64,000 bases of DNA. Source: an uncultured Solirubrobacterales bacterium (GTDB taxonomy: Bacteria; Actinomycetota; Thermoleophilia; Solirubrobacterales; JACPNS01). Made by a program: the position numbers and the translations under genes. This document shows positions 10,228-20,458 of this stretch, piece by piece. The stretch is from NCBI GenBank assembly GCA_937128795.1, contig CAKZMQ010000007.1:62001-126000 (forward strand), given 5' to 3'. Each line of letters starts with the position of its first letter. Positions within the stretch are counted from its first letter, which is position 1. The notes beneath the pieces were generated by a model, which was given only the letters and a program-made list of their open reading frames with translations, was not told where the DNA came from and ran no database searches.

Positions 10228-10382
10228 TGTACGCATCAAGAGGGGTGGAGGGACTGGCCCGAAGAAACCCCGGCAACCGCCGCTATTTGATCCGGAATGC
10301 ATTCCATTCCAGATATTCAAATAGAGGAAAGGTGCCAATTCCAGCAAGCCATCCAGAAATGGGTCGACTTGGAGATGTGGAC
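10228..10382 (+). ncRNA. SAM-I (S-box) riboswitch
   Basis: Matches the SAM-I core in order: ATCAAGAG, GGTGGAGGGACTGGCCC, GAA-ACCCCGGCAACC, a variable P3 stem (ATTTGA pairing with TCAAAT), then GGTGCCAATTCCAGCA and the closing AGATG that pairs with GCATC at the 5' side. SAM binding is expected to stabilise this fold and favour the terminator that follows, switching off the operon when methionine/SAM is plentiful. Ends are approximate. Confidence 0.93.
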
Positions 10383-10490: not shown

Positions 10491-11756
10491 ATGGCCGTAG
10501 ATGCGCCCCAAATCAAATCGACATCAACCGAGCAATGTCTCAAGTGCAAGGAATGCGGAAACGAGTACCCGCTTGAGGCACGTTTTGTCTGCGAGCAATG
10601 CTTCGGCCCGCTCGAGGTCCAGTACGACTTCGGTGGACTTGACGTAGCCGAGGCAAAGCGCAAGATTCAGGCCGGCCCGCAGAGCATCTGGCGATACTCC
10701 GACTTTTTGCCGTTTGAGGAGCAGCCCAAGAGTGTGCTCGCGACCGGTATGACGCCACTGATTCACGCGACCCGTCTCGGCGCGTACTTGGGCGGACTGA
10801 AGAACGTCTACATCAAGAATGATGCCGCCAATCCGACGCACTCGTTCAAGGATCGCGTGGTGAGCATCGCAATCGCCAAGGCTCGCGAACTCGGCTACGA
10901 CGTGATCGCGTGCGCCTCGACTGGAAACCTCGCAAACGCAGTGGCGGCACATGCCGCTGCGGCAGGGCTCGACAGCTACGTCTTCATCCCGACTGATCTG
11001 GAGGAGCAGAAGATTCTCGCGACCGGTGTCTACGGCACCGAACTGGTTGGCGTTAAGGGCAACTATGACGACGTCAATCGTCTGTGCACCGAGCTTTCTG
11101 CCGAGTACGACTGGGCCTTCGTGAACATCAACATGAGGCCGTACTACAGCGAGGGCTCGAAGACGCTGGCCTATGAGGCGATCGAACAACTCGGTTGGGA
11201 AGTTCCCGATCGTGTAGTCGCGCCAATCGCCTCTGGTTCGCTTTTCACCAAGCTCTTCAAGGGCTACAACGAATGGCTCGACGTCGGACTCGTCGACGGC
11301 AAAACACCGATCTTTCACGGTGCGCAGGCCACCGGCTGCAATCCGGTCGCGACGGCGTTCGAGAACGGCAACGACTTCTGTCAACCGGTCAAGCCGGACA
11401 CGATCGCCAAATCACTCGCGATCGGAAACCCGGCCGATGGGCCGTACGCGCTCGACGTTGCGCGCGGCACCGGCGGCAGCATCGAACAGGTCACCGACGA
11501 TGAGATTCGCGCGGGCATCAAACTGCTGGCTCACACGACAGGCGTTTTCACCGAGACAGCCGGAGGCGTTACGGTTGCGAGTCTGAAGAAGCTTGCCGAT
11601 CGCGGAGAGATCGATCCCGACGAAACCGTTGTCGTCTACATCACCGGCGAGGGCCTGAAGACGCTCGACGCGGCACGCGGGACCTTCGAGAAATACGAGA
11701 TCGACCCGACGGTCGATGCGTTCAATCATTTCGTCCCGACGCCGGTAACTGCGTAG
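10491..11756 (+). CDS. Threonine-synthase-family PLP enzyme under SAM riboswitch control
   Basis: Fold-type II PLP enzyme of 421 residues. By family it would convert O-phosphohomoserine to threonine. The PLP lysine is Lys120 in THSFKDR, the phosphate-binding ASTGNLAN is at 142-149, and an N-terminal zinc ribbon (Cys19, Cys22, Cys34, Cys37) is typical of one ThrC group. Control by a methionine-type riboswitch and a CysO-like sulfur carrier starting 40 nt downstream do not fit plain threonine synthesis. Since O-phosphohomoserine is also a possible homocysteine precursor, I infer a homocysteine synthase using thiocarboxylated carrier. Ordinary threonine synthase remains the default alternative. 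No hom, thrB or met genes are in the window. Confidence 0.85.
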   Translation: MAVDAPQIKSTSTEQCLKCKECGNEYPLEARFVCEQCFGPLEVQYDFGGLDVAEAKRKIQAGPQSIWRYSDFLPFEEQPKSVLATGMTPLIHATRLGAYLGGLKNVYIKNDAANPTHSFKDRVVSIAIAKARELGYDVIACASTGNLANAVAAHAAAAGLDSYVFIPTDLEEQKILATGVYGTELVGVKGNYDDVNRLCTELSAEYDWAFVNINMRPYYSEGSKTLAYEAIEQLGWEVPDRVVAPIASGSLFTKLFKGYNEWLDVGLVDGKTPIFHGAQATGCNPVATAFENGNDFCQPVKPDTIAKSLAIGNPADGPYALDVARGTGGSIEQVTDDEIRAGIKLLAHTTGVFTETAGGVTVASLKKLADRGEIDPDETVVVYITGEGLKTLDAARGTFEKYEIDPTVDAFNHFVPTPVTA

Positions 11757-11796: not shown

Positions 11797-12075
11797 ATGG
11801 CAGTAACGGTCAAGATTCCGGCGCAGTTGCGTCCGGTCGTAGACAATCAGGCAACGGTTTCCGTGAATGCAAGCGGAACGGTGTCAGAGATACTCGACGC
11901 GCTCTACGGTGAATTTCCGGACCTCAAAGATCGCATCAGCGAAAACGGTGAACTGCGCCGCTTTGTGAATGTGTATGTCGCGGATGAGGACATACGATTT
12001 GGCGATGGCCTCGAAACCGCCGTCGCAGACGGCAGCGAAGTGACGATTCTGCCTGCAGTCGCCGGCGGCTGCTGA
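11797..12075 (+). CDS. CysO/ThiS/MoaD-family sulfur carrier ending in Gly-Gly-Cys
   Basis: A 92-residue beta-grasp (ubiquitin-like) protein closely resembling mycobacterial CysO: the RRFVNVYVADEDIRF segment and the tail EVTILPAVAGG are characteristic. Such carriers are adenylated at the C-terminal GG and thiocarboxylated to donate sulfur. Here one extra cysteine follows GG before the stop, so the primary product has the covalent form of a CysO-cysteine adduct and should need trimming by a Mec+/JAMM-type peptidase before activation. Good ribosome-binding site (AGGAGA). No moeZ-like activating enzyme or JAMM peptidase is in the window. Confidence 0.93.
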   Translation: MAVTVKIPAQLRPVVDNQATVSVNASGTVSEILDALYGEFPDLKDRISENGELRRFVNVYVADEDIRFGDGLETAVADGSEVTILPAVAGGC

Positions 12076-12091: not shown

Positions 12092-12832
12092 GTGAATCCC
12101 ACCGTCGCGATCCTCTGTGGGGGTAGGGGCACGCGCATCGCGCGTGACGAGGACGATCTGCCCAAGCCGCTGGTTCCGGTCGGCGGACGACCAATTCTTT
12201 GGCACGTGATGGCGCTGTATGCGGCGCAGGGATTCACGAAGTTTTTGCTGCTCACCGGTTGGCAGTCGGACCGCGTTGCCCGCGCAGCCCAGCAGTTTGA
12301 ACAGGTTGACGACGGCGATTGGACTGTCGACATCCTCGACACGGGCAACGACACCGAGACCGGCGGGCGCGTGGCGCGAGCTCGTCAGCTACTGAACGGC
12401 GAGACGTTCGCACTGACGTACGCGGACGGCGTGGCCGACATCGATCTCAACGCGGAACTTGCATTCCACCGATCCGAGGGAGCGCTGGCGACGATCGCTG
12501 TCACGCGACCGAAAAGTCCATGGGGCGAGGCAAGGCTCGACGACGACCGCATCACCGGATTCGTGGAGAAGCCCACGCTGGAAACGTGGATAAACGGCGG
12601 CTTCATGTTCATGGAGCCCGGTGTCTTCGACTTCATCGCTGTCGACGACGTGCTCGAACGGAGGCCACTTGAGAATCTTGCCACCGAGGGCGAACTTCGC
12701 GCGTTTCGCCACGAGGGTTTCTGGGAATGCATGGACACCTACAAAGATTCGATCCAGCTGAACGATCTTTGCGCCGATGGCACTCCGCCTTGGCTGAAGA
12801 TCGCGACGCCGGCGAAGGGTGCCACCGGATGA
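12092..12832 (+). CDS. Sugar-1-phosphate nucleotidyltransferase (RfbF-like)
   Basis: Most like glucose-1-phosphate cytidylyltransferase, which makes CDP-glucose. Marks are the nucleotide loop LCGGRGTRIARDED, KPLVPVGGRPILWHVM, the catalytic region TYADGVADIDL, and the ending FWECMDTYKD that parallels the RfbF ending. It is 246 residues, slightly shorter than typical RfbF. The start is a GTG only 16 nt after the sulfur-carrier stop, so it is probably in the SAM-regulated transcript. Its stop overlaps the next start (ATGA). The nucleotide (CTP or another) is not certain from sequence. Confidence 0.85.
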   Translation: MNPTVAILCGGRGTRIARDEDDLPKPLVPVGGRPILWHVMALYAAQGFTKFLLLTGWQSDRVARAAQQFEQVDDGDWTVDILDTGNDTETGGRVARARQLLNGETFALTYADGVADIDLNAELAFHRSEGALATIAVTRPKSPWGEARLDDDRITGFVEKPTLETWINGGFMFMEPGVFDFIAVDDVLERRPLENLATEGELRAFRHEGFWECMDTYKDSIQLNDLCADGTPPWLKIATPAKGATG

Positions 12833-13815
12833 ACGACCGTCGCTCAGAGGTCGCACTCGTGACCGGTGCCGATGGCTTCATTGGCAGCTGGCTGACCGAG
12901 CGGCTCGTCAACGACGGCGCCGACGTCGTGATTCTCAAGCGTGATCGCCCGGCGTTGTCGCGTCTGCGAATCGAGGGAACGGAGGACCGTTGCTCGATCG
13001 CTATTGGCGATCTCTCTGATCACCAGGCGCTGCTGCGCATACTCAATGAATATGGCGTTACGTCGGTCTTTCATCTTGCGGCCCAGGCGATCGTTGCCGT
13101 CGCCAATCGTTCTCCGCTCTCGACTTTTGAGACCAACGTTCGCGGAACTTACAACCTGCTCGAAGCGGCGCGACTTGCACCGACGGTCGATCGTGTTGTC
13201 GTGGCGTCGAGCGACAAGGCATATGGACAGCACGAGGACCTGCCATACCGCGAGGACGCGAAGCTCCAACCGACGTTTCCGTACGACACATCCAAAGCAG
13301 CCGCTGATTTGATCGCGCGCTCGTATGCAGAAACTTATGGCCTGCCGGTCGCGGTGACACGTTTGGCGAACGTCTACGGCGGCGGCGACTTCAATTTTTC
13401 GCGATTGGTGCCGGAGACGGTCCGCGCGATTCTCGAAGGACGCGCGCCGATCGTGAGATCCGACGGATCACCCGAACGCGACTTCATCTACGCGGCAGAC
13501 GCGGTCGACGCGTATTTGACGATCGCCGACGGACTCGCCGACGAGTCCAACTACGGCATGGCATTCAACGCCGGCGCAGGACGGCCGTGGTCCGTCCGCG
13601 AAATGGTCGACACATTGGTCGACGTCGCCGGTAGCGACGTGACGGCGGACTACCGTGGCTCGGGAGTTCCCGAGGGCGAAATCGATCGCCAGTACCTCGA
13701 CTCGTCGCTGATCCACGAACGTCTAGGCTGGCAGCCGAAATGGGATCTGCGAGACGGATTGACGGAGACCTTCGGATGGTACGAACGGACGCTACCGGCG
13801 TTGATCGCCAGATGA
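12829..13815 (+). CDS. NAD-dependent sugar-nucleotide dehydratase/epimerase (CDP-glucose 4,6-dehydratase-like)
   Basis: Extended short-chain dehydrogenase with the Rossmann motif GADGFIG (residues 13-19), FHLAAQ, a catalytic SSDK (127-130) like the S/T-D-K of CDP-glucose 4,6-dehydratases, and YDTSK (Tyr152, Lys156). It likely oxidises and dehydrates an NDP-hexose to a 4-keto-6-deoxy sugar, using the product of the upstream nucleotidyltransferase. It is translationally coupled through ATGA; the start is set there because the open frame further upstream lies inside the previous gene. Length is 328 residues. GDP-mannose dehydratase or a 4-epimerase are alternatives. Confidence 0.82.
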   Translation: MNDRRSEVALVTGADGFIGSWLTERLVNDGADVVILKRDRPALSRLRIEGTEDRCSIAIGDLSDHQALLRILNEYGVTSVFHLAAQAIVAVANRSPLSTFETNVRGTYNLLEAARLAPTVDRVVVASSDKAYGQHEDLPYREDAKLQPTFPYDTSKAAADLIARSYAETYGLPVAVTRLANVYGGGDFNFSRLVPETVRAILEGRAPIVRSDGSPERDFIYAADAVDAYLTIADGLADESNYGMAFNAGAGRPWSVREMVDTLVDVAGSDVTADYRGSGVPEGEIDRQYLDSSLIHERLGWQPKWDLRDGLTETFGWYERTLPALIAR

Positions 13816-20385: not shown

Positions 20386-20458
20386 CGCGCACGGCTGGAT
20401 TCGAACCAGCGGCTTCTTCCTTCGGAGGGAAGCACTCTATCCACTGAGCTACGTGCGC
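20386..20458 (-). tRNA. tRNA-Arg (anticodon CCG)
   Basis: 73-nt cloverleaf: acceptor GCGCACG/CGTGCGC (7 bp), D-arm GCTCAGTGGATAGAG, anticodon stem CTTCC/GGAAG with loop CTCCGAA, T-arm CTGGTTCGAATCCAG, discriminator G. CCA is not encoded. It reads CGG codons. Confidence 0.95.

What the first reader, a model, noticed from the sequence alone, without database searches (positions are those of the whole stretch)
12049..12075. Sulfur carrier encoded with a terminal Gly-Gly-Cys
The codons read GCC GGC GGC TGC TGA, so the protein ends AVAGGC instead of the CysO ending AVAGG. Carriers with residues after GG (HcyS-Ala in Wolinella, QbsE and PdtH-type carriers with Cys-Phe) need a JAMM-type peptidase before activation. 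A single Cys also makes the primary product identical in connectivity to the CysO-Cys intermediate released by Mec+.
Basis: partly seen in the sequence, partly recalled or inferred. Interest (0 to 1): 0.65.

Follow-up and report, generated by a model that had tools for sequence, protein, structure and literature searches.

The report
Methionine-pathway sulfur carrier, extra cysteine
The gene encodes a small sulfur-carrying protein that probably supplies sulfur for making homocysteine, the precursor of methionine, and its single extra cysteine at the end is one of many interchangeable add-ons seen after the working Gly-Gly end in this protein family, so the finding is real but mostly ordinary.

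Summary
The 92-aa ThiS/MoaD-type carrier at 11797-12075 (+) ends ...ILPAVAGGC (GGC GGC TGC TGA).

The context changes what it is. The gene directly upstream (10491-11756, annotated threonine synthase) sits behind a SAM riboswitch (10230-10381). It is 54-65% identical to other carrier-linked ThrC-like proteins, but only 35% to the genome's own canonical ThrC, which lies in a hom-thrC-thrB cluster elsewhere. The genome has no convincing MetB/C/Y/Z, MetX or DUF39 enzyme. The pair therefore fits MetM-MetO, published in 2024 from Streptomyces: homocysteine from O-phosphohomoserine plus a thiocarboxylated carrier. It does not fit CysO.

The Cys also occurs in sister assemblies, so it is not a sequencing error. 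It is not conserved: a congeneric species has Ala, and most relatives stop at GG.

Best reading: a tolerated one-residue pro-tail, probably born by duplication of CTG at GGC|TGA and probably trimmed by JAMM. Two relatives carry tails without a detectable JAMM, unresolved. In acI freshwater actinobacteria the Cys after GG is conserved, a more interesting case.

The parts
10230..10381 (+). SAM riboswitch aptamer (S box, RF00162) leading the metM-metO pair
   Evidence: cmscan 72.2 bits (gathering 44.4), E 2.9e-16; also found in 10 of 12 related thrC-carrier loci and in 0 of 11 CysO-type loci
10491..11756 (+). ThrC-like PLP enzyme with N-terminal Cys4 zinc-ribbon-like segment; MetM-type homocysteine synthase candidate
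   Evidence: TIGR00260 299 bits, PALP 235 bits; 54-65% identity to other carrier-linked ThrC-like proteins against 34.6% to the genome's canonical ThrC
11797..12075 (+). ThiS/MoaD-type sulfur carrier, MetO candidate, ending AVAGGC
   Evidence: Pfam ThiS 54.1 bits; NCBIfam SAMP1 67.8 bits; closest solved structures are M. tuberculosis CysO 3dwg_C and the carrier 4n6e_B; directly downstream of the ThrC-like gene, as in nearly all close relatives
12064..12069 (+). Gly-Gly codons, expected site of adenylation and thiocarboxylation
   Evidence: sequence; aligned with the C-terminus of CysO
12070..12072 (+). TGC codon, the extra C-terminal Cys; context GGCGG-CTG-CTG-A is what a CTG duplication of GGCGGCTGA would give
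   Evidence: sequence; context statistics

Best explanation
The window gene is a MetO-type sulfur carrier in a SAM-riboswitch-controlled metM-metO operon. The MoeZ-like protein encoded elsewhere adenylates and thiocarboxylates its Gly-Gly end, and the ThrC-like neighbour (MetM) uses O-phosphohomoserine and this sulfur to make homocysteine. The encoded Cys is a one-residue pro-tail that must be absent before activation; the genome's single JAMM (Mec-like) peptidase, which must already cope with a Gln tail on the paralogous carrier, is the likely trimmer and may also release the homocysteine adduct. The Cys most likely arose by duplication of CTG at the GGC|TGA stop junction and is tolerated, not selected. 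Shown: gene order, riboswitch, paralogy, presence of the enzymes, variability of the tail. Inferred: chemistry, trimming, mutational origin.
For: Identity as MetO: SAM riboswitch directly upstream, E 2.9e-16; present in 10 of 12 homologous loci and in 0 of 11 CysO-type loci. The ThrC-like neighbour is a paralogue distinct from the canonical ThrC, which lies in a hom-thrC-thrB cluster. No convincing Cys_Met_Meta_PP enzyme (best 34.7 bits, partial), MetX (23 bits) or DUF39. In 99 class genomes at least 95% complete, all 25 that lack such an enzyme have the thrC-type carrier, Fisher P 4.5e-6. Published MetM/MetO, with a SAM riboswitch in S. albulus, is described in PMC12172450. Trimming: a single JAMM beside MoeZ, a second carrier ending GGQ, and CysM. 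JAMM enzymes are reported to cleave carrier fusions to leave a C-terminal Gly (PMC8832034). Tolerance: of 123 thrC-linked carriers 86 have no tail, 10 C, 10 R, 8 A, the rest others; at least 25 state changes on the MetM tree, 8 involving Cys. Duplication: 52 of 86 GG-stop genes read GGC|TGA, 6 of 10 Cys-tailed genes read GGC TGC TGA, none of 86 has a second stop next door; a Streptomyces-size genome (L238) shows the same change against its genus-mates.
Against: No biochemistry. Hasebe et al. 2024 could not be read, so MetM/MetO details come from a citing paper and memory. That citing paper reports that the Microcystis homologue acts mainly as threonine synthase and threonine deaminase. The genome is a 93.8% complete draft, so absences are not certain. 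G065 (97% complete) and G294 have tailed carriers without a detectable Prok-JAB gene, although G065's cluster runs to within 1.3 kb of a contig end. The association test ignores phylogeny. Cys is over-represented among tails relative to random codons, and in acI bacteria it is conserved, so selection in some lineages is not excluded.
Confidence: 0.75

Rival explanations
1. One reading: a CysO-like carrier encoded as a ready-made CysO-Cys mimic, which Mec/JAMM opens as if it were the cysteine adduct.
For: GG-Cys has the connectivity of the CysO-Cys amide; a JAMM, MoeZ-like protein and CysM exist in the genome; in acI actinobacteria the Cys after GG is conserved in JAMM-carrier-CysM operons.
Against: The window carrier is not in the CysM/JAMM cluster; that cluster has its own carrier, ending GGQ. 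The window carrier is SAM-regulated and paired with a ThrC-like enzyme. A congener has Ala and most relatives have no tail.
Confidence: 0.12
2. The tail residue is selected: Cys is preferred after GG because the JAMM enzyme cleaves GG-Cys best, or because Cys gives redox or metal control of activation.
For: Cys is the joint commonest single-residue tail in the thrC-linked set, at least 8 state changes involve it, and it is conserved in acI although third codon positions of the compared pairs are only 42-68% identical.
Against: In the window's own lineage the residue switches to Ala, and the majority state is no tail. The CTG-duplication route predicts Cys without selection. Aquificae show M, I or R at this codon among close kin.
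Confidence: 0.15
3. The ThrC-like enzyme is simply a second threonine synthase or threonine deaminase and the carrier serves another acceptor (CysM, MoaE or tRNA thiolation).
For: The Microcystis homologue has threonine synthase and deaminase activity in vitro (PMC12172450); many class members have both this pair and a MetY-type enzyme (40 of 99).
Against: SAM riboswitch, absence of other homocysteine routes, and a canonical hom-thrC-thrB cluster in the same genome.
Confidence: 0.1
4. Sequencing or annotation artefact at the stop codon.
For: Draft genome; one residue only.
Against: Sister assemblies encode the same Cys with different codons and stops.
Confidence: 0.01

Closest known systems
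MetM-MetO homocysteine route of Streptomyces (Hasebe et al. 2024, Appl Environ Microbiol 90:e01247-24; read here only through PMC12172450)
   Same: ThrC-like gene followed by a carrier gene, SAM riboswitch upstream, no canonical homocysteine enzyme in the genome
   Different: Thermoleophilia lineage; one extra C-terminal Cys; function not assayed
CysO-Mec+-CysM pathway of Mycobacterium tuberculosis (Rv1334-1336)
   Same: Same carrier fold and VAGG end (76 bits to 3dwg_C); complete cluster with a paralogous carrier present elsewhere in this genome
   Different: The window carrier is not linked to mec or cysM, is SAM-regulated, and has one residue after GG
Wolinella HcyS with its JAMM peptidase (Krishnamoorthy and Begley 2011, details from memory)
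   Same: Carrier with one residue after GG used for methionine synthesis
   Different: HcyS works with MetY, not a ThrC-like enzyme, and its JAMM is in the same cluster
MoaD-MoaE and MoaX fusions cleaved by JAMM (DRJAMM, PMC8832034; MoaX, PMC4326299)
   Same: Carrier made as a precursor that must be cut after the Gly
   Different: There the extension is a whole domain; here it is one residue

Membership tests
MetM-MetO system | ThrC-like PLP enzyme distinct from canonical threonine synthase | tested here: met
   54-65% to carrier-linked ThrC-like proteins, 34.6% to own ThrC in hom-thrC-thrB
MetM-MetO system | Sulfur-carrier gene directly downstream | tested here: met
   40-bp gap; same pair across Thermoleophilia, Actinomycetes, Chloroflexota, Aquificota and a cyanobacterium
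MetM-MetO system | SAM-responsive leader (as in S. albulus) | tested here: met
   RF00162 72.2 bits
MetM-MetO system | Genome lacks other homocysteine routes | tested here: met
   No convincing PF01053, MetX or DUF39 match; draft 93.8% complete; MetA (PF04204) not searched
MetM-MetO system | O-phosphohomoserine plus carrier thiocarboxylate gives homocysteine | not testable with these tools
   needs enzyme assay
CysO (Mec-CysO-CysM) | Carrier encoded beside mec and cysM | tested here: not met
   Met by the paralogue at L004:5266-5541, not by the window gene
JAMM-processed carrier (HcyS/QbsE/PdtH type) | Residues encoded after the Gly-Gly | tested here: met
   Cys after GG
JAMM-processed carrier (HcyS/QbsE/PdtH type) | JAMM peptidase in the genome | tested here: met
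   one Prok-JAB, 72.3 bits, motif intact
JAMM-processed carrier (HcyS/QbsE/PdtH type) | JAMM peptidase in the same cluster | tested here: not met
   JAMM is on contig C14 and the carrier on C7
JAMM-processed carrier (HcyS/QbsE/PdtH type) | Every tailed carrier coexists with a JAMM | tested here: inconclusive
   G065 (tail QA) and G294 (tail A) show no Prok-JAB; assembly gaps possible
JAMM-processed carrier (HcyS/QbsE/PdtH type) | JAMM removes the tail | not testable with these tools
   needs mass spectrometry

The most novel reading that the evidence does not exclude
Cys after GG is a selected, genetically encoded copy of the cysteine adduct. In lineages such as acI freshwater actinobacteria (and, weakly, this genus) the JAMM peptidase recognises GG-Cys specifically, so newly made carrier enters the cycle through the product-release step and matures only when that enzyme is active.
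Probability: 0.12. Interest if true: 0.55.

Novelty: new member of a known kind. Interest (0 to 1): 0.3.

Why it matters
It places a large, mostly uncultured actinobacterial class in the recently found O-phosphohomoserine route to methionine, explaining how near-complete genomes without MetB, MetY or MetZ could be prototrophic. Carrier-linked ThrC-like genes also occur in Aquificaceae, whose relative Aquifex was listed in 2018 as having an unknown homocysteine pathway (PMC5764234). It also shows that the residues after Gly-Gly in these carriers are fluid, so an unusual C-terminal residue alone should not be read as a special mechanism.

Tried and rejected
Sequencing error: rejected by sister assemblies. 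CysO identity: rejected by gene context and by the separate CysO-like cluster. Stop-loss point mutation as the source of one-residue tails: not supported, since none of 86 GG-stop genes has a stop in the next codon. Presence of JAMM as a predictor of tails: uninformative, because JAMM is found in 247 of 299 class genomes, including those with a bare GG. Primary papers on MetM/MetO, HcyS and the 2-thiosugar carriers were not held.

Full report
Observation. The ORF 11797-12075 (+) reads MAVTVKIPAQLRP...VTILPAVAGGC; the last codons are GCC GGC GGC TGC TGA. It is a ThiS/MoaD-family carrier (Pfam ThiS 54.1 bits, NCBIfam SAMP1 67.8 bits). Its best solved relatives are M. tuberculosis CysO (3dwg_C) and the carrier 4n6e_B; both alignments end at the second Gly.

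Is the Cys real? Yes. Same-genus genome G127 (95% identical carrier) and the record L008 (91%) encode GGC as GGT TGC TAG, and L010 (79%) as GGC TGC TGA. But G130, also same genus (L090, matching record L009), ends GGA, and most Thermoleophilia carriers stop at GG.

Machinery in the genome. The draft (2.43 Mb, 93.8% complete) has one Prok-JAB gene, a 402-aa rhodanese + ThiF protein (MoeZ-like, with the rhodanese at the N-terminus), a second carrier ending PAMAGGQ and a CysM-like gene, all within about 4 kb on contig C14. The JAMM sequence contains NECCG and HSHTRSAAYPSQTD, the complete metal-binding motif. So the CysO-like pathway exists, with its own carrier, which itself carries a one-residue tail (Gln).

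What the window carrier is. It lies 40 bp downstream of a ThrC-like gene (10491-11756). A SAM riboswitch aptamer precedes that gene (10230-10381, 72.2 bits, E 2.9e-16). Ten of twelve homologous thrC-carrier loci have the same riboswitch before the pair, against none of eleven CysO-type loci. The genome has a second, canonical thrC in a hom-thrC-thrB cluster. The window's ThrC-like protein is only 34.6% identical to it but 54-65% identical to carrier-linked ThrC-like proteins of actinomycetes, Chloroflexota, Aquificaceae and a cyanobacterium. The genome lacks a convincing MetB/C/Y/Z (best match 34.7 bits, partial), MetX (23 bits) and DUF39. These features match MetM-MetO of Streptomyces, in which a ThrC-like enzyme makes homocysteine from O-phosphohomoserine with a thiocarboxylated carrier. 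The primary paper is not held. Its existence, the metO neighbour and the SAM riboswitch of S. albulus metM are taken from PMC12172450; other details are from memory.

Association. Of 99 class genomes at least 95% complete, 25 have the thrC-type carrier and no strong PF01053 match, 40 have both, 34 have only PF01053, and none has neither (Fisher P 4.5e-6). The carrier class was set by E-value (at most 2e-22), the test does not correct for shared ancestry, and many genomes have both routes. It supports the role but does not prove it.

The tail. Among 123 thrC-linked carriers (a few near-duplicates from two collections), 86 stop at GG; tails are C (10), R (10), A (8), LK (2) and single cases of AR, RR, M, I, SR, QA and S. 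On a tree of 117 MetM proteins the tail state changes at least 25 times, Cys at least 8 times, and tail versus none at least 19 times (quick method; 40 of 113 inner branches have support under 80). In Aquificae the single codon after GG is M, I or R among near-identical proteins. This is how an unconstrained position behaves. Across the phylum, carriers of both operon types show tails from 0 to more than 15 residues, and in three loci the carrier is fused in frame to CysM (L163, L164, L213). Such precursors fit the reported ability of JAMM enzymes to cut carrier fusions after the Gly (PMC8832034).

Why Cys? In 52 of 86 untailed genes the junction is GGC|TGA. Duplicating CTG (or GCT or TGC) there gives GGC TGC TGA, exactly the window context and that of 6 of 10 Cys-tailed genes. 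None of the 86 has a second stop in the next codon, so a point mutation of the stop would give a longer tail. A Streptomyces-size genome (L238, g136) shows the same GGCGGCTGCTGA against GGCGGCTGA or close variants in its genus-mates. Cys is commoner than random codon insertion would give (with roughly 7 of 20 gains assumed), but the duplication route removes the surprise.

Where Cys may matter. In 13 acI-type freshwater actinobacterial loci the JAMM-carrier-CysM operon has Cys directly after GG in every case, including GGCN and GGCM, while third codon positions of compared pairs are 42-68% identical.

Unresolved. G065 (97% complete) and G294 have tailed carriers (QA and A) but no Prok-JAB match. 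In G294 the MoeZ-carrier and CysM genes are on one contig with no JAMM between them; in G065 the MoeZ-carrier pair ends 1.3 kb from a contig end. Either the gene is missing from the assemblies or another peptidase trims.

Verdict. Real observation, better explained as a new member of MetM-MetO with a tolerated one-residue tail.

Noticed in passing
L056, L067, L070, L073-L076, L078, L082, L083, L086, L049, L057 (carrier C-termini): In acI-type freshwater actinobacteria the CysO-type carrier (JAMM-carrier-CysM operon) keeps Cys directly after GG in all 13 loci despite strong synonymous divergence.
   Followed up: partly
L163, L164 (G225, G271) and L213 (G318): Carrier fused in frame to the N-terminus of CysM (399-413 aa) with a JAMM gene nearby: a precursor that would need cutting after GG.
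   Followed up: partly
L118/L284 (G065) and L119/L285 (G294): Both carriers tailed in G065, one shown tailed in G294, but no JAMM gene detected in either genome.
   Followed up: partly
L059, L061, L065, L066 (Aquificaceae): MetM-MetO-like pair in Aquificaceae, a group for which the homocysteine pathway was listed as unknown in 2018 (PMC5764234); no SAM riboswitch found in L059.
   Followed up: partly
L004:3997-5205: MoeZ-like protein has its rhodanese domain at the N-terminus, unlike the C-terminal rhodanese of mycobacterial MoeZR.
   Followed up: no
L005/L003 (G000:C7:262879-264425): A second ThiF-like protein sits beside a CysK-like gene and a CysE-like serine acetyltransferase, suggesting a second cysteine route.
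   Followed up: no
12092-13815: Sugar-nucleotide genes (glucose-1-phosphate cytidylyltransferase-like and an NAD-sugar epimerase/dehydratase-like ORF) start 16 bp after the carrier on the same strand.
   Followed up: no
20386-20458 (-): tRNA gene (Rfam tRNA, 71.1 bits).
   Followed up: no
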